Source of the DNA: Bacillota bacterium | GTDB lineage: Bacteria; Bacillota; Bacilli; Alicyclobacillales; SLC66 | Assembly: GCA_021797415.1 (NCBI GenBank) | Contig: JAJZZT010000340.1 | Span: 1 to 8,955 of the forward strand | Length of the DNA: 8,955 nt | Reading direction: 5' to 3' | In this document: positions 2,404 through 8,955 of the stretch, piece by piece | Position numbering within the stretch: position 1 is the first letter of the stretch | Layout of the letters: every line of letters starts with the position of its first letter | Made by a program: the position numbers and the translations under genes | The notes under the pieces: generated by a model | The model's input: only the letters and a program-made list of their open reading frames with translations | What the model was told of the DNA's origin: nothing | Databases searched by the model: none

Positions 2404-2566
2404 CCCTATGCCCTGCGAGTTCCGCGCCATGGACAAGTTTGCTGGGCCGTCGCCATGCCCTATGCCCGGCGAGTTTGGCGCCATGGGCAAGGTTTGCTGG
2501 GCCGTCGCCATGCCCTATGCCTGCGAGTTTAGCGCCATGGACAAGGTTTGCTGAGCCGCAGGCATC
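2404..2566. repeat. Tandem repeat, period 54-55 bp, three clear copies
   Basis: Copies begin at the word CCCTATG at 2404, 2458 and 2513, so the spacings are 54 and 55 bp. Shared blocks are CCCTATGCC, GCGAGTT, GCGCCATGG, CAAGGTTTGCTG and GGCCGTCGCCATG; the copies differ by scattered substitutions and one-base indels. A fourth, decayed copy seems to start near 2567 (CCCTTTG then CGCGAGTTTAGCG). The array lies just upstream of the lipoprotein start codon. The repeats encode short periodic peptides on both strands, but no good ribosome binding site and no conserved frame (the unit is not always a multiple of three), so I do not call a gene. Confidence 0.85.
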
Positions 2567-2620
2567 CCTTTGCTCGTCGCGAGTTTAGCGATAGCGGTGT
2601 CCGAGCAGGAGCAAAGGGAT
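2564..2620. repeat. 12-bp perfect inverted repeat with 33-nt spacer
   Basis: ATCCCTTTGCTC at 2564-2575 is the exact reverse complement of GAGCAAAGGGAT at 2609-2620. Inside the spacer TCGC (2577-2580) can pair with GCGA (2588-2591), so a branched hairpin is possible on either strand. It stands at the end of the 54-bp tandem array and about 105 bp past the stop of the SpoIID-like gene. No T-tract follows on either strand, so a classical intrinsic terminator is not supported; a processed RNA hairpin or the end of a mobile repeat are alternatives. The remaining bases 2621-2725 show no gene or other signal that I can identify. Confidence 0.7.
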
Positions 2621-2725
2621 ACTGGCGGCTAGCCCCTGACCCTCATTTTCAAGATAGCGTAGCATGATTTGCCGTCCCATCGCAATGTCAGGATCGCCCG
2701 CACACCCTGAAACCGCCCGAGCGCC

Positions 2726-3966: not shown

Positions 3967-4141
3967 GTTTTAGAGGTTGTTCAGAATAGATGTTACGGTC
4001 ACGCTTATTTAGCAATTCCCGGATTCTGGAGAAACATGTGTCTGAAGATGATTGGTCCAAGCGGATGATTGACCCAAATTGGGCGATTGCAATTCAAGAG
4101 TGCCTGCGGGTGTTGAGTGCGCATTTCGCCGCCCGAAGCTG

Positions 4142-4147
4142 TACAAT
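4142..4147 (+). promoter_or_regulatory. Weak candidate -10 box for the ywhD-decarboxylase unit
   Basis: TACAAT matches five of six bases of the sigma-A -10 consensus, but no good -35 sits 16-18 bp upstream (TTGAGT at 4113 is 23 bp away). It is listed only because no better candidate lies before the YwhD gene. Confidence 0.2.
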
Positions 4148-4159
4148 GAACACAGAGAA

Positions 4160-4178
4160 TCTACAAGATCATGGTTCA
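4160..4178 (+). repeat. 19-bp direct repeat, copy 1
   Basis: TCTACAAGATCATGGTTCA occurs here and again, identically, at 4319-4337. The two copies flank the hairpin-rich 140-bp segment, as a duplicated target or a recombination product would. Confidence 0.85.
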
Positions 4179-4216
4179 AAAAGGGGCGGGTAAGACCCGC
4201 GCAGTGCAAGAAAGCA

Positions 4217-4270
4217 GCCAGGAATGCGGACCGAGCGGACGTTTTTGGCACGTGAGAGAGCATTCCTGGC
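4217..4270. repeat. 11-bp perfect inverted repeat (hairpin core)
   Basis: GCCAGGAATGC (4217-4227) pairs with GCATTCCTGGC (4260-4270) across a 32-nt spacer. It is nested inside the larger TTCAAAAAGGGG/CCCCTTTTTGAA pair, giving a long, interrupted stem between 4175 and 4313. Confidence 0.7.
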
Positions 4271-4318
4271 GATGACGAGGCAATGCGCCGGGGAGTTCTG
4301 CCCCCTTTTTGAACAACC

Positions 4319-4337
4319 TCTACAAGATCATGGTTCA
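4319..4337 (+). repeat. 19-bp direct repeat, copy 2
   Basis: Identical to 4160-4178. This copy overlaps the inverted-repeat end at 4310-4322 and ends only 16 bp before the likely start codon of the YwhD gene, so it contributes to that gene's leader. Confidence 0.85.
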
Positions 4338-4353: not shown

Positions 4354-4980
4354 GTGGAGCGACTACAGTTGACTGGCGCAAACCGCCATCGTGCGCCCGA
4401 TGCGTTGTCCAATCTGTCCGCGGTGTTGATCGACGGGGAGGACATCCGGATCGACAACGGGGCCATCCACGGGAAAGCTTACGTGGAACGCGGCATCCGC
4501 TTTGTGGGCGATCCGGAGGATGTGCCGAATCCCCGGCGCATCGCGGTGGTGTGGGTGACGCTGCGGCGTGCCGTTCCCGGACTCGGCGTAAACGGTCTGG
4601 GAGCGAGCGTCATGCAGATTGACGCCGATGCGGGAGTCGGGTATAAGCATCTCGCCGATCAGGTGAACAAAATGGACGGCGCGGTCAGGGGCAAAATCAT
4701 GCTGGAATCTCTCACCCAGACGGAGCATCGTCTGTTGGGCGCTTTTTTGATGGCCCAACGGGCCGAATTGTGGGAGAATGCGACGGAGGCCGTGTGGGCG
4801 GAGTGGCTCACTCCCGAACAGTACGCTCCGATGAAAGAGAAGATGGACGACGCTTTGCGCCACCGGGAGGAACTGCGCATCCAAGCGGAGGCGGAGGCCA
4901 AACAGGATTTGGCGCCTCCCTCGAATGGGGGTCTTCGTCCGCGATACGCTGACAGGGAAGCCGGGGAGGGAGAAGCCTGA
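4354..4980 (+). CDS. ywhD: YwhD family protein
   Basis: A 208-residue cytoplasmic protein that resembles the Bacilli YwhD family. The recognisable stretches are SAVLIDGEDIRIDNGAIHGK with VERGIRF following, VVWVTLRR, GYKHLADQVNKMDGAVRGKI and LLGAFLMAQRAELWE. The biochemical role of the family is not established as far as I know. In Bacillus subtilis ywhD lies close to the spermidine synthase and agmatinase genes; here it immediately precedes a decarboxylase that could make agmatine, so a link to polyamine metabolism is a reasonable inference. I choose GTG 4354 because GGAAGGTGG lies about 7 nt upstream; ATG 4330 is in frame but has no ribosome binding site and falls inside the 19-bp repeat. 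The C-terminus is a charged, Ala/Glu/Arg-rich tail after about residue 165, longer than I would expect. The stop is 2 bp before the next start, so the two genes are cotranscribed and probably translationally coupled. Confidence 0.8.
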   Translation: MERLQLTGANRHRAPDALSNLSAVLIDGEDIRIDNGAIHGKAYVERGIRFVGDPEDVPNPRRIAVVWVTLRRAVPGLGVNGLGASVMQIDADAGVGYKHLADQVNKMDGAVRGKIMLESLTQTEHRLLGAFLMAQRAELWENATEAVWAEWLTPEQYAPMKEKMDDALRHREELRIQAEAEAKQDLAPPSNGGLRPRYADREAGEGEA

Positions 4981-4982
4981 GC

Positions 4983-6470
4983 GTGTTGGATATCGCATTC
5001 TGCCGCAATGCGGATCGTCTCGACCAATCAATCACACCGTTGTTTTCAGCCTTGCGCGAACATGCGGCCAGGCGTCCCGTGCAATTTCACATTCCCGGAC
5101 ACAAGACAGGGCGCGCGATGGATCCCGAATTTCGCGAGTTTCTCGGTGAGCGCGCGCTCAGCATCGATCTCATCAACATCACGCCGCTCGATGATCTCAT
5201 GCACCCGACGGGCATTATCGCGCAGGCGCAAAAACTGGCGGCCGAGGCGTTCGGGGCAGACGCGACTTTTTTTTCCGTCCAGGGAACGAGCGGGGCAATC
5301 ATGGCGATGATCATGGCGGTCGTCGGGCCCGGCGAAGAAATCCTGGTTCCGCGCAATATTCACAAGTCTGTTTTGGCGGCCATCATTCTGTCCGGCGCAA
5401 AACCGTACTTTCTGCATCCGGAGATCGATCCGAAACTGGGCATCGCCCACGGTGTGCGCGCCGAGTCTGTCGCGGCCGGACTGGCAGCACACCCGCACGT
5501 GAAAGCGGTCCTTGTGATCAATCCGACGTATTTCGGCGTTGCGACCGACCTGCAGCGCATCGTTGGGATTGCGCATGCCCGCGGCGTCGCGGTGTTGGTC
5601 GACGAAGCACACGGCGTGCACACGTATTTTCACGAAGACTTGCCGATTTCAGCGATGGCCGCGGGATGTGACATGGCCGCCACCAGTGTGCACAAACTGG
5701 GCGGATCGTTGACCCAGAGTTCCATTCTGAACGTCAAAGAAGGGATCGTCAGGGCGCGGCATGTGCACTCGGTGCTGTCCATGCTGACGACGACATCCAC
5801 TTCGTACATTCTGCTCGCGTCGCTTGACGCGGCGCGGCGCCAGTTGGCCCTGTCCGGACGGGCGATGCTGGAGTGCGCCATTGAACTGGCGCAGCGCGCC
5901 AGGCGCCGGATCAATGAACTGCCCGGCCTGTATTGCTTTGGCGAGGAGATTCTCAGTTGCTCCGCCACGTATGCTTTCGATCCGCTGAAGCTGACGGTCC
6001 GCGTCGCTGATCTGGGGTTGACGGGGTACGAGGTGGAGCGGCTGTTGCGCGAGCAGTACGGGATCGAAGTGGAACTGTCCGATTTGTACAATATATTGTG
6101 CATCGTCAGTTTTGGCGATGACGAGTCGACGGTGAGCGCGCTTCTCGCCGCGCTCTCGGATATCAGCAAAAATCATCCTCCGCGGCCGGGCGCGCCGCCG
6201 AAGATATTCGCCCCGTCCACTCCCCGTCTTGCCATGCCGCCGCGAGAGGCGTTCTATGCCGACGCGGAAGTGGTTCCGCTGCGCGAATCGATCGGCCGGA
6301 CGATAGCGGACATGATCATGGTCTATCCCCCCGGCATTCCAATCCTGCTGCCCGGAGAGATCGTCACATTGGACAACGTGCAGTACATCGAGGAGTCGTT
6401 GCATGCCGGATTGCCTGTTCAGGGACCGGACGATCCAACCATCTCCCTCGTGCGCGTGGTGCGGCAATAA
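4983..6470 (+). CDS. speA: Orn/Lys/Arg decarboxylase-family PLP enzyme (probable arginine decarboxylase)
   Basis: A 495-residue fold-type I PLP decarboxylase of the Orn/Lys/Arg major-domain family, in the compact Bacilli form without the wing domain of the long enterobacterial enzymes. Landmarks are HIPGHKTG at residues 36-43, the SVQGTSGAIMAMI glycine-rich cofactor loop, DEAHG with Asp207 (pyridine nitrogen) and His210, and SVHKLGGSLTQSS with Lys238 as the Schiff-base lysine. The C-terminal domain has VYPPGIPILLPGE (447-459), the family's end signature. The expected reaction is arginine to agmatine plus CO2, the first step of the agmatine route to putrescine and spermidine. Lysine or ornithine specificity cannot be excluded from motifs alone. 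The GTG start is supported by GGGGAGGGAG at 4963-4972, inside the end of ywhD. Unlike in some Bacilli, no spermidine synthase or agmatinase gene follows. Confidence 0.9.
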   Translation: MLDIAFCRNADRLDQSITPLFSALREHAARRPVQFHIPGHKTGRAMDPEFREFLGERALSIDLINITPLDDLMHPTGIIAQAQKLAAEAFGADATFFSVQGTSGAIMAMIMAVVGPGEEILVPRNIHKSVLAAIILSGAKPYFLHPEIDPKLGIAHGVRAESVAAGLAAHPHVKAVLVINPTYFGVATDLQRIVGIAHARGVAVLVDEAHGVHTYFHEDLPISAMAAGCDMAATSVHKLGGSLTQSSILNVKEGIVRARHVHSVLSMLTTTSTSYILLASLDAARRQLALSGRAMLECAIELAQRARRRINELPGLYCFGEEILSCSATYAFDPLKLTVRVADLGLTGYEVERLLREQYGIEVELSDLYNILCIVSFGDDESTVSALLAALSDISKNHPPRPGAPPKIFAPSTPRLAMPPREAFYADAEVVPLRESIGRTIADMIMVYPPGIPILLPGEIVTLDNVQYIEESLHAGLPVQGPDDPTISLVRVVRQ

Positions 6471-6521: not shown

Positions 6522-6540
6522 GAGTGCTGAAACCACATAG

Positions 6541-6646
6541 CCGAATCGCGCCGTATGGCGCGTACGGAGGAACCGTATGGAACTGGGGTGAACTCTTCGC
6601 GAGCGGGCAACCTTCGCCCGAACCCGTCAGCTAACTCCGGAGGCGC
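6541..6646 (+). ncRNA. c-di-AMP riboswitch (ydaO/yuaA leader)
   Basis: The leader carries the conserved words of the ydaO-yuaA class in the right order: GGAGGAACCG (6566-6575), TGGGGTGAACTC, GGGCAACCTTCGCCCGAACC and CCGTCAGCTAACTCCGGAGG. P1 can form between CGGAG (6565-6569) and CTCCG (6635-6639), extended across a small symmetrical loop by GCGC (6558-6561) with GCGC (6643-6646). GCGCC (6548-6552) can instead pair with GGCGC at 6557-6561 or with GGCGC at 6642-6646, a potential switch between two folds. The class binds cyclic di-AMP and usually turns off genes for cell-wall hydrolases and osmolyte transport. The downstream gene is a LysM-3D cell-wall protein, one of the classical targets. I see no intrinsic terminator between the aptamer and the start codon; the ribosome binding site directly abuts P1. 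Confidence 0.93.
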
Positions 6647-6653
6647 AGGAGGG
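6647..6653 (+). promoter_or_regulatory. Ribosome binding site abutting the riboswitch P1 stem
   Basis: AGGAGGG starts on the base after the last P1 base and ends 3 nt before the ATG at 6657. It fixes the start after the aptamer (an in-frame ATG at 6555 lies inside the riboswitch and is spurious) and is well placed to be blocked when P1 is stabilised. Confidence 0.65.
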
Positions 6654-6656
6654 ACC

Positions 6657-7445
6657 ATGCCGGACATATCACGGAGACGCGCTGCGGCCGCCGTTTGCGC
6701 GGTTGCAGGAAGCGCCTGTCTGACGTTTTTCACTCTTCCCCCATCCTTTGCCGCGGCCGCTGGATTGCCGTCGGCGCCCCATATCGTGAGTGCCGGAGAA
6801 ACTGTTCAGTCCGTCGCGGCGGTCGGCGAATTCGGACTGGCGGATTTTCTTCGGGTCAACCATCTCTTGGCATCGTCCCGTCTCTATTCGGGTGAGCGAC
6901 TTGCCCTGCCGTTTCTGTACAAGGTGCAGGCAGGAGACCAACTGGGCTATCTGGCTCGCCAGTATCAAACGACAGTGGCGTCGATCTGCGCTTTGAACCA
7001 TCTGTCGCCTTCATTGCCCTTGTGCGCCGGACAGGTGCTCTTGATTGCACGCGGCAGCACGACGGCAACCGGCGCGGGGATCCTGCGCCGGCCCCTGTTG
7101 CGGCGTTTCATCCCGGTTGCCGCGCCTGTGAAGAGAATGACGGCCACCGCGTATGATGCCTCTTCCGCTTCCAACGGCGGGTATGGCGGGGTGAATGCCT
7201 TGGGCCAGCCGCTGCGTTTTGGCGGTGTGGCTGTCGACCCATCCGTGATTCCCTTGGGAAGCAGGCTGTTTATCAGCGGCTACAGCGATCCCGCGTTGCC
7301 AAAGGGCGGATTTTACGCGGTGGCCAACGATGTGGGGGGTGCGATCCAGGGGAACCGGATCGACATTTTCCTGCCCGGCGGTCGGAGTAATGCGGATGCT
7401 TTCGGCATTGAACAGGTGATGGTGCGGATTCTGGCGCGCGGTTAG
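6657..7445 (+). CDS. Secreted LysM-3D domain protein (probable peptidoglycan hydrolase)
   Basis: A 262-residue exported cell-wall protein of the kind typically found under c-di-AMP riboswitches. Residues 1-35 are a signal peptide (MPDISRRR, a hydrophobic Ala/Val/Leu core, then SFAAAAG). Two LysM peptidoglycan-binding repeats follow: a degenerate one at about 42-85 (HIVSAGETVQSVA) and a clear one at 88-131 (YKVQAGDQLGYLARQYQTTV). The C-terminal 3D domain spans about 158-260 with its three hallmark aspartates at Asp194 (GVAVDPSVIPLG), Asp225 (AVANDVGGAI) and Asp236 (GNRIDIFL); TATAYDASS opens the domain. 3D domains have a double-psi barrel like MltA and are thought to cleave glycan strands, as in YocH or resuscitation-promoting factors. 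The likely role is wall remodelling, repressed when c-di-AMP is high. It appears to be a single-gene unit. Confidence 0.92.
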   Translation: MPDISRRRAAAAVCAVAGSACLTFFTLPPSFAAAAGLPSAPHIVSAGETVQSVAAVGEFGLADFLRVNHLLASSRLYSGERLALPFLYKVQAGDQLGYLARQYQTTVASICALNHLSPSLPLCAGQVLLIARGSTTATGAGILRRPLLRRFIPVAAPVKRMTATAYDASSASNGGYGGVNALGQPLRFGGVAVDPSVIPLGSRLFISGYSDPALPKGGFYAVANDVGGAIQGNRIDIFLPGGRSNADAFGIEQVMVRILARG

Positions 7446-7501: not shown

Positions 7502-7508
7502 AGGAGGG
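7502..7508 (+). promoter_or_regulatory. Ribosome binding site of the peroxiredoxin gene
   Basis: AGGAGGG with 7 nt to the ATG at 7516. It argues that the segment before the TGA is truly translated and not dead sequence. Confidence 0.75.
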
Positions 7509-7515
7509 ATTGGGC

Positions 7516-7992
7516 ATGCCGCTTGAAGTCGGACAGGCCGCGCCGGTGTTCACGTTGCCGGCGACAAGCGCCGAAGAAGTGTCTTTGGAAGAGTACCGGG
7601 GACGGATTGTCGTGCTGTTTTTCTACCCCAAAGACGATACGCCCGGCTGAACGAACGAGGCCGGCCAGTTCCGCGACGCATATGCGGCGTTCACGGAATT
7701 GGGGGCACAGGTGCTGGGTCTCAGCACGGACAGCATCGCATCACATGAAAAGTTTTCCCGCAAACTGGCGTTGCCGTATCCCCTGTTGTCCGACGCCGAC
7801 GCCGCAGTCTGTTCGGCGTACGGGGTGTACAAAGAAAAGAACATGTACGGGAAGAAGTACATGGGGATTGAACGAACGACGGTTGTGATCGACGAACGCG
7901 GGATGATTCGTCGCGTCTATCCGAAAGTGAAGGTGGAGGGCCACGCGCGGGCGGTGTTGGACGATCTGAACGCCGATCGGCAAAAGGTGTGA
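7516..7992 (+). CDS. bcp: Selenocysteine-containing thiol peroxidase (PrxQ/BCP type), TGA read as Sec at codon 45
   Basis: A thioredoxin-fold peroxiredoxin that reduces hydrogen peroxide and organic hydroperoxides. Read through the in-frame TGA at 7648-7650 it gives 158 residues, the normal BCP/PrxQ length. The TGA sits exactly at the peroxidatic cysteine: FYPKDDTPG-U-TNEAGQFRD, where relatives have Cys after DTPG. Family sequence continues in the same frame on both sides, including GLSTDSIASHEKF, LLSDADAAVCSAYGVY and GIERTTVVID, with no other disruption. The most economical reading is selenocysteine. The resolving Cys of PrxQ enzymes, five residues on, is Gly50 here; Cys99 is the only cysteine. 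AGGAGGG 8 nt before the ATG is an excellent ribosome binding site, so translation starts well upstream of the TGA. A nonsense mutation or a base error changing TGC or TGT to TGA cannot be excluded without the genome's sel genes. Standard annotation would give a 44-residue stub plus a false ORF from 7699. Confidence 0.85.
7648..7693 (+). promoter_or_regulatory. Candidate bacterial SECIS stem-loop beginning at the UGA
   Basis: TGAACG (7648-7653, including the UGA itself) is the exact reverse complement of CGTTCA (7688-7693). Within it, CCGC (7671-7674) can pair with GCGG (7684-7687), leaving a 9-nt apical loop that begins with G, 27 nt after the start of the UGA. That spacing and a G at the first loop positions fit the general bacterial SECIS description, but the upper stem is only 4 bp. 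A competing hairpin joins GAAC (7653-7656) with GTTC (7668-7671). This is hand-drawn pairing, not a computed fold. Confidence 0.4.
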
Positions 7993-8015: not shown

Positions 8016-8050
8016 ACTCTCCCGTCCATCCTGTGAGGAAACGGGAGAGT
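8016..8050 (+). promoter_or_regulatory. Perfect 10-bp hairpin covering the next ribosome binding site
   Basis: ACTCTCCCGT (8016-8025) is the exact reverse complement of ACGGGAGAGT (8041-8050). The 15-nt loop can form a further 4-bp stem (TCCT 8029-8032 with AGGA 8036-8039). The 3' arm contains GGGAG (8043-8047), the ribosome binding site of the metalloprotease gene, so the fold would hide it. GATTTT follows the stem, so it could alternatively be a weak terminator of the peroxiredoxin transcript. Confidence 0.65.
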
Positions 8051-8057
8051 GATTTTG

Positions 8058-8955
8058 ATGCGTATTGCACCGCTGCTGGTGCTTGGGGCAATGGCCGTAT
8101 TCACGCTGTCGCAGATGCCCGCCTCCCGGGTGCGCGCCGCCAGTGAAGCGATCGGCCGGAGCATCGCCAATCTGGAGGTGCAGGGTTGGCGTTGGTTCAA
8201 CGACGATCCCGCGCGGCGAGCCGAGTTGGACAGGCTGGCCGCTGAGATCGGGCGCGGTCTTGCCGCTGCGCAATCCTGGGTTTTTGGCGCAGTTGGCGGG
8301 TTCTCCGGCCATCTGCACACGATTGCGGGCGTACAGATGCAGATTGACGGCGCTGCGGCGGACAAACAGGCGATCGTCCGTCTGGCCGGCGGCATCTCCA
8401 TCCCGCAGATCCAGCGGACACTGGGAATGACGTTTCATGGGCCGATTGCAGTCAGCTTGCTCCAGGACAAGAGTGCTTACGATAAGGCGCTGATGTCGCT
8501 GGGAGCGACGGGATCCCAGGCGGGCGTCATGGTGGATCGGACATCGGGCGTCGAGGCGGGGGACAGCGTGTATCTACCGCTGTTCAACGATGGCGGCAAA
8601 TATATGCTGGCGAATGTGCTGACCCATGAATTGACGCACGTCCTCTTTTATCAAAATAATCTATCCAACACCTTGCCCACATGGTTGAACGAGGGGACAG
8701 CCTGGTATGAGGGGCTGACGGCGGAACGCTCGCTGTCCCGGTTGTCTGCCGATCATCAGCTTGAAGTGGGCCTGCAGGGAGTGGGCGTCGCGTCTTCATC
8801 GGGAACGGCATTGTCGTTGCAGGCGACGGAGGCCCAACTGCTGCGCGCCCCGTATGACGTGGAGATCCAGGATTATGAAGCGGTTTCGCTTCTGGTGGCG
8901 CTGCACGGGTTTGCGCATTACGCCGCGTTTTTGCGCGAAGTTCGTCGGACTAGCG
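8058..8955 (+). CDS. Secreted HExxH zinc metalloprotease (peptidase MA-like), 3'-truncated by window edge
   Basis: An exported gluzincin-type metallopeptidase, open to the end of the window (299 codons, no stop). The signal peptide is MRIAPLLVLGAMAVFTLSQ... with probable cleavage after Ala27. The catalytic zinc site is HELTH at residues 190-194, with Glu191 as general base, and the third ligand Glu212 lies in LPTWLNEGTAWYEG. This HExxH...PxWLxEG arrangement is that of the peptidase MA-like family, whose substrates are mostly unknown. Residues 28-185 form a mostly alpha/beta N-terminal region (Trp- and Arg-rich at first) that I cannot assign. The C-terminal part after about 255 (YEAVSLLVALHGFAHYAAFL) looks helical, as in the helical half of such peptidases. 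ATG 8058 is preferred with GGGAG 10 nt upstream; in-frame GTG 8049 and TTG 8055 are alternatives that would add 3 or 1 residues. The gene starts 65 bp after the selenoprotein stop and may be cotranscribed. Confidence 0.85.
   Translation, partial: MRIAPLLVLGAMAVFTLSQMPASRVRAASEAIGRSIANLEVQGWRWFNDDPARRAELDRLAAEIGRGLAAAQSWVFGAVGGFSGHLHTIAGVQMQIDGAAADKQAIVRLAGGISIPQIQRTLGMTFHGPIAVSLLQDKSAYDKALMSLGATGSQAGVMVDRTSGVEAGDSVYLPLFNDGGKYMLANVLTHELTHVLFYQNNLSNTLPTWLNEGTAWYEGLTAERSLSRLSADHQLEVGLQGVGVASSSGTALSLQATEAQLLRAPYDVEIQDYEAVSLLVALHGFAHYAAFLREVRRTS

What the first reader, a model, noticed from the sequence alone, without database searches (positions are those of the whole stretch)
7516..7992. Probable selenocysteine peroxiredoxin (PrxQ/BCP) hidden by an in-frame TGA
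The sequence shows one in-frame TGA, located precisely at the peroxidatic cysteine codon of an otherwise intact PrxQ/BCP gene with a strong ribosome binding site. Cys-to-Sec exchange at redox catalytic positions is the hallmark of bacterial selenoproteins, and peroxiredoxin selenoproteins are known. A random nonsense mutation hitting exactly this codon, with no other decay, is much less likely. A PrxQ-type selenoprotein in a Bacilli-like genome would be unusual and would be missed by routine annotation.
Basis: partly seen in the sequence, partly recalled or inferred. Interest (0 to 1): 0.92.

Follow-up and report, generated by a model that had tools for sequence, protein, structure and literature searches.

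The report
Selenocysteine peroxiredoxin in acid-loving Bacilli
The gene looks broken by a stop codon but is almost certainly intact: the stop is read as the rare amino acid selenocysteine at the active site of a peroxide-destroying enzyme, a known kind of selenoprotein here found in a group of mostly acid-tolerant, spore-forming bacteria where gene annotation may miss it.

Summary
Confirmed. Window 7516-7992 encodes a PrxQ/BCP peroxiredoxin with one in-frame TGA (7648-7650) exactly at the peroxidatic cysteine. It is not a one-off mutation: 18 of the 56 gene-bearing genomes (59 searched) in the order of Ferroacidibacillus organovorans carry TGA at that codon, frame intact behind it. All 18 show tRNA-Sec or selA; 10 of 38 genomes with a Cys codon do (p about 1e-7, kinship not corrected). 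In the nearest family most genomes carry selA, selB, selD (itself with TGA) and tRNA-Sec. Selection acts on both sides of the TGA. No genome is held for the window itself, so its own Sec machinery is inferred from kin. Most TGA genes of the order share a hairpin at about +17 to +54, weaker in Cys genes, but the window's fails the standard SECIS loop rule. Sec-containing COG1225/Bcp peroxiredoxin is an already described selenoprotein family (PMC9312934, PMC1088965; passages seen), so this is a new member of a known kind. The fresher point: 18 of 19 Sec forms lack the usual resolving cysteine, against 8 of 38 Cys forms.

The parts
7516..7992 (+). prxQ/bcp gene, 158 aa with codon 45 read as selenocysteine; ends in TGA (7990-7992)
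7648..7650 (+). in-frame TGA at the peroxidatic (C_P) codon, predicted selenocysteine 45 (TPG-U-TNEA; TxxU motif)
7502..7507 (+). Shine-Dalgarno-like AGGAGG, 8 nt before the ATG
   Evidence: read directly
7665..7702 (+). SECIS-like hairpin, 17-54 nt after the T of TGA; arms about 7666-7679 and 7688-7701
   Evidence: in the window it does not satisfy the published G-in-loop rule
7663..7665 (+). codon 50 (GGC, Gly), the place of the classic +5 resolving cysteine, absent here
7810..7812 (+). Cys99, the only other cysteine of the protein; possible but unproven partner of Sec45
4354..4980 (+). YwhD-family gene, conserved neighbour
4983..6470 (+). Orn/Lys/Arg decarboxylase-like gene, conserved neighbour, used to place the window among its kin
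6657..7445 (+). LysM-3D cell-wall protein gene just upstream, neighbour in most loci of the closer family

Best explanation
The gene is a functional selenoprotein gene: UGA at codon 45 is decoded as selenocysteine by SelB and Sec-tRNA(Sec), probably guided by the hairpin just downstream, giving a PrxQ/BCP peroxiredoxin whose peroxidatic residue is Sec instead of Cys. Shown by comparison: UGA conserved at this codon at a syntenic locus, intact and selected frame behind it, Sec machinery in the same genomes. Inferred: that the window's own genome has that machinery, that the hairpin is the SECIS, and the chemistry. Likely chemistry: the selenolate reduces H2O2 or an organic peroxide and becomes a selenenic acid. 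With neither usual resolving cysteine present (+5 or helix 3; positions recalled), that is reduced by Cys99 or by an outside thiol (thioredoxin or bacillithiol): a one-Sec cycle rather than the classic two-Cys cycle.
For: TGA at the C_P codon in 3 of the 80 best loci, from F. organovorans, a Bacillota MAG and Alicyclobacillus sp. SP_1, and in 18 of 56 gene-bearing genomes of the order plus the window. Sec machinery: 18 of 18 TGA genomes have tRNA-Sec or selA vs 10 of 38 Cys genomes, p 1.2e-7; selA alone 17 of 18 vs 10 of 38; tRNA-Sec alone 16 of 18 vs 10 of 38. In the family of 18 genomes selB, selA and selD pass the cut-off in 16, 16 and 17, and the selD hit carries one in-frame TGA in those 17. 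ARAGORN calls tRNA-SeC(tca) at 15 of the 19 loci given to it, one per genome; the other 4 are tRNA-Ser. Outside the order, 3 TGA genomes all have tRNA-Sec and the 3 top-scoring Cys genomes have none at E 1e-9. Behind the TGA, third codon positions differ 2.1 to 2.8 times as often as first or second ones against five orthologues. YwhD and the decarboxylase sit beside prxQ in 18 of 18 TGA loci of the order. Hairpin: 78.3% of cells paired vs at most 52.5% in slid registers, covariation score 0.317 vs 0.207 shuffled; mean energy -14.1 kcal/mol in 17 distinct TGA genes vs -9.4 in 38 Cys genes.
Against: No genome is held for the window, so its own selA, selB, selD and tRNA-Sec were not seen. Among TGA genomes, G015 and G016 show no true tRNA-Sec and G044 no selA. 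A simple scan near the published SECIS form (perfect stem of at least 4 pairs, loop of 3-8, G in its first two places) hits 10 of 19 TGA genes but 34 of 38 Cys genes, so it gives no support, and the window itself fails it. The hairpin register was chosen on the same sequences that were then counted; pairs with changes on both sides alone are not striking (37 of 500 shuffles as high); G004 and G049 barely form it (3 and 5 of 9 lower pairs); and the three TGA genes outside the order do not share it (another strong hairpin at +30 to +51). Sec-using genomes need not use Sec here: 10 have a Cys gene. No protein-level evidence exists.
Confidence: 0.95

Rival explanations
1. Pseudogene: the TGA is a recent nonsense mutation and the gene is dying.
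For: TGA is a normal stop of other genes of the window; one in-frame stop is what a fresh pseudogene shows.
Against: Same codon in 18 of 56 gene-bearing genomes of the order and in 3 more outside it; no other in-frame stop before the end; purifying selection behind the TGA.
Confidence: 0.02
2. Assembly or sequencing error in a metagenome contig.
For: No genome is held; the identical decarboxylase is known from one contig of 11,666 bases, so the window seems to be a metagenome contig.
Against: Orthologues in named genome records (Ferroacidibacillus organovorans SLC66, Alicyclobacillus sp. SP_1) show the same TGA.
Confidence: 0.01
3. UGA is read, but as something else: Cys, Trp or Gly by reassignment or near-cognate readthrough, or it is mainly a regulatory stop that gives a 44-residue peptide.
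For: The SECIS is not of the textbook form; Cys insertion at UGA under low selenium is known for some selenoproteins (recalled).
Against: TGA ends two other genes of the window, so no general reassignment; at this codon the 56 genomes have only TGA or Cys codons, and TGA goes with selA and tRNA-Sec.
Confidence: 0.02

Closest known systems
Sec-containing peroxiredoxin family Prx (COG1225/Bcp, motif TxxU); type case PrxU of Eubacterium acidaminophilum (Sohling 2001, seen only as a reference in PMC9312934 and PMC13188914)
   Same: Same family, TxxU motif, UGA at the peroxidatic position.
   Different: Host group (mostly acid-tolerant Bacilli) not seen in print in my searches; resolving Cys at +5 replaced; SECIS-like hairpin not of the standard form. 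The NCBIfam PrxU model scores only 68.6 of 270 bits, so it is not PrxU itself.
Cys-containing two-Cys PrxQ/BCP (solved: 5enu, 5iiz/5iph, 3gkn and others; their source organisms are recalled as Burkholderia, Xylella, Xanthomonas)
   Same: Same sequence family and active-site surroundings.
   Different: Sec instead of Cys at C_P; no cysteine at +5 or at position 81, the helix-3 place.
Thiol peroxidase Prx-SUH (NF045827)
   Same: Another listed selenoprotein peroxidase related to Prx.
   Different: Listed with motif CxxU (PMC13188914 table, passage); only 24.8 of 298 bits here.

Membership tests
Sec-containing peroxiredoxin (COG1225/Bcp, TxxU) | PrxQ/BCP sequence family | tested here: met
   NF006960 143.9 bits vs cut-off 140; PF00578 E 2.9e-42
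Sec-containing peroxiredoxin (COG1225/Bcp, TxxU) | UGA at the peroxidatic position in a TxxU motif | tested here: met
   DDTPG-U-TNEA, codon 45
Sec-containing peroxiredoxin (COG1225/Bcp, TxxU) | UGA conserved and paired with Cys in homologues | tested here: met
   TGA in 18, Cys in 38 of 56 gene-bearing genomes of the order
Sec-containing peroxiredoxin (COG1225/Bcp, TxxU) | Sec machinery in the host genome | tested here: inconclusive
   Window genome not held; in kin 18 of 18 TGA genomes have tRNA-Sec or selA
Sec-containing peroxiredoxin (COG1225/Bcp, TxxU) | Bacterial SECIS: 3-9 nt loop with G in the first two places, 4-16 bp stem, 16-37 nt from UGA (PMC13188914, passage) | tested here: inconclusive
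   Shared hairpin with covariation, but 9 of 19 TGA genes, the window among them, fail a perfect-stem scan near this rule, and that scan hits 34 of 38 Cys genes
Sec-containing peroxiredoxin (COG1225/Bcp, TxxU) | Selenium shown in the protein | not testable with these tools
   needs 75Se labelling or mass spectrometry
Two-Cys PrxQ | Resolving Cys at +5 (helix 2) or in helix 3 (positions recalled) | tested here: not met
   Gly50 and Ser81 in the window; +5 Cys in 1 of 19 Sec genes of the order (window included) vs 30 of 38 Cys genes; position 81 Cys in none of either set

The most novel reading that the evidence does not exclude
In this order PrxQ has switched from a two-Cys to a one-Sec enzyme: Sec at the active site goes with loss of the resolving cysteine. 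Cys genes that lack it in Sec-using genomes (G006, G009, G010, G011, G054) would be later Sec-to-Cys reversions. The locus would be a natural series for asking what Sec buys a peroxidase in aerobic, acidic, metal-rich habitats. The UGA may also be served by a SECIS outside the standard model. Against it: G036 and G037 lack both Sec machinery and the +5 Cys, and G004 has Sec with the +5 Cys kept.
Probability: 0.45. Interest if true: 0.55.

Novelty: new member of a known kind. Interest (0 to 1): 0.42.

Why it matters
Standard annotation may miss the gene: the 120 listed best hits among 5.8 billion predicted proteins reach at most 64% identity (8000 candidates scored), while genome DNA holds TGA orthologues at 63-70%, 7 of 11 at 66% or more. 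It extends Sec-peroxiredoxin to a group of Bacilli and shows Sec and Cys forms exchanged at what looks like one syntenic locus (18 of 18 TGA and 4 of 4 examined Cys loci have the decarboxylase beside it), with the resolving cysteine lost alongside. That makes the question of what Sec adds to a peroxidase testable in close natural pairs.

Tried and rejected
Single-sequence folding just behind the TGA gave nothing unusual for 53 nt (z -0.03) and a weak signal for 81 nt (z -2.19). A perfect-stem scan near the published SECIS form did not separate TGA from Cys genes. RNAalifold on all 19 TGA genes gave no structure; on the 12 of the closer family a weak one. The i+j=71 hairpin register, found by eye, held for the order but not for the three TGA genes outside it. 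SelD genes show a different, shorter hairpin: my script read 9 of 19 selD loci, took a wrong frame in one (L158) and found none in 9; 6 of the 9 have GGUCC-loop-GGACC. No sigma-70-like promoter was found before the gene. PrxU and Prx-SUH membership rejected on score. Literature: searches showed no report of a selenoprotein in Alicyclobacillus, Ferroacidibacillus, Sulfoacidibacillus or Effusibacillus. These were listings; of the 5 papers in one search only PMC4378227 was looked into (two passages, on Sec formate dehydrogenase in Sulfobacillus), and the two papers of one search that hold both 'seleno' and Effusibacillus were not opened. Supplements could not be read.

Full report
Observation. 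The window holds a complete prxQ/bcp gene at 7516-7992 (+) with AGGAGG 8 nt before its ATG and a single in-frame TGA at 7648-7650. With that codon as Cys the 158-residue protein passes the NCBIfam cut-off for thioredoxin-dependent thiol peroxidase (143.9 vs 140 bits) and matches Pfam AhpC-TSA. Codon 45 is the peroxidatic Cys of the PGCT motif, present in all 15 hits aligned (15 of 120 listed).

Conservation of the TGA. F. organovorans is of class Bacilli, family Alicyclobacillaceae in NCBI's taxonomy; 'family', 'order' and 'class' below are the groups of the genome search tool. In its family (18 genomes) 16 have the gene and 11 of these carry TGA. In its order (59 genomes) 56 have it and 18 carry TGA. 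Re-alignment of all 56 put the TGA on codon 45 in all 18, with the next stop 107 or more codons on. In a sample of 398 genomes of the class 348 match; only the best part of the matches was printed, and there 3 genomes outside the order carry TGA (G071, G122, G082), at codon 45.

Sec machinery. In the family, selB, selA and selD exceed their cut-offs in 16, 16 and 17 of 18 genomes, and the selD hit carries one in-frame TGA in those 17. tRNA-Sec scores 53-70 bits in 27 of 59 genomes of the order. Hits near 49 bits were dropped: G015 and a second one in G003 are tRNA-Ser by ARAGORN, G048 was not checked. ARAGORN calls tRNA-SeC(tca) at 15 of 19 loci given to it. Against the codon: 18 of 18 TGA genomes have tRNA-Sec or selA, 10 of 38 Cys genomes do (Fisher p 1.2e-7; kinship not corrected). 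Gaps: G015 and G016 lack tRNA-Sec, G044 lacks selA. Outside the order, the 3 TGA genomes have tRNA-Sec and the 3 top-scoring Cys genomes do not. The window's own genome is not held. By its PrxQ it falls in the F. organovorans family clade (100/98 support; 17 rows, 12 Sec), and it shares the gene order YwhD, decarboxylase, LysM-3D, PrxQ.

Selection. Between the window and five TGA orthologues, differences per codon behind the TGA are 0.22-0.27 (first position), 0.21-0.24 (second) and 0.56-0.61 (third): the frame behind the TGA is under protein-level selection. TGA terminates two other genes of the window, so the code is not generally changed.

Hairpin. In 17 distinct TGA genes of the order (window included) a stem-loop at about +17 to +54 recurs in one register: 15 of 17 form 6 or more of 9 lower pairs (G049 5, G004 3) against 11 of 38 Cys genes (p 1.1e-5). 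Thirteen pairs give 78.3% paired cells (68.8% shuffled; 29-52.5% in slid registers) and a covariation score of 0.317 (0.207 shuffled), while the number of pairs with changes on both sides is matched by 37 of 500 shuffles. Mean fold energy is -14.1 kcal/mol vs -9.4 in the Cys genes, despite lower G+C. Against it: the register was chosen on the same data; it is absent from the three TGA genes outside the order, which have another hairpin at +30 to +51; and the published loop rule (passages of PMC13188914) is met by 10 of 19 TGA genes in a strict scan that also hits 34 of 38 Cys genes. I call it a SECIS candidate.

Mechanism. Sec forms lack the +5 resolving Cys in 18 of 19 cases in the order (window included), Cys forms in 8 of 38 (p 7.7e-8, kinship not corrected); the three outside also lack it. 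Position 81, the helix-3 alternative (recalled), is Cys in neither set. Cys99 is the only other cysteine in the window protein and is present in 18 of 19 Sec and 37 of 38 Cys genes of the order. So a one-Sec cycle with an outside thiol, or with Cys99, is likely; this is inference. The PrxQ tree needs 5 changes of the Sec label, at least 2 by well-supported branches, so Sec and Cys were probably exchanged more than once. Results that do not fit a simple story: G004 has Sec and the +5 Cys; G036 and G037 have neither Sec machinery nor the +5 Cys.

Known or new. PMC9312934 (passages) lists peroxiredoxin COG1225 (Bcp) TxxU as a selenoprotein family; PMC1088965 (passages) found 43 Sec-Prx of COG1225 in the Sargasso Sea; PMC1794560 (passages) counts 12 Sec-Prx in all and 3 selenoproteins in Bacillales. 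The kind is known. The host group was not seen in print in searches. PMC5330540 (tRNA-Sec survey) has no occurrence of Alicyclobacill-, Bacilli, Firmicutes or Bacillales in its main text, and the genome announcement PMC4888994 none of 'seleno' or 'selenium'.

Noticed in passing
window 3968-4325: MITE-like stretch: 19-nt inverted ends (89%), inner 13-nt inverted repeat, and a 19-nt direct repeat at 4160 and 4319.
   Followed up: partly
window 2411-2630: Three copies of a 49-nt unit spaced 54-55 nt, then a 22-nt inverted repeat (86%).
   Followed up: partly
window 6529-6660: c-di-AMP riboswitch (RF00379, 70.1 bits) directly before the LysM-3D cell-wall gene.
   Followed up: no
L203 (G014, contig C80): A second AhpC/TSA-type gene (39% identical) with an in-frame TGA at the active-site position: another possible selenoprotein.
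   Followed up: partly
L146-L165 (selD loci): SelD in 17 of 18 genomes of the family is itself a predicted selenoprotein; a GGUCC-loop-GGACC hairpin about 15-27 nt after its UGA is seen in 6 of the 9 loci that the script read.
   Followed up: partly
window 8049-8954: ORF cut by the window end with an HELTH...NEG metal-protease-like motif; no Pfam match. The motif reading is recalled.
   Followed up: no
G006, G009, G010, G011, G038, G039, G040, G054, G055, G059: Ten genomes of the order have Sec machinery but a Cys PrxQ; five of them (G006, G009, G010, G011, G054) also lack the +5 cysteine, as expected of Sec-to-Cys reversion.
   Followed up: partly
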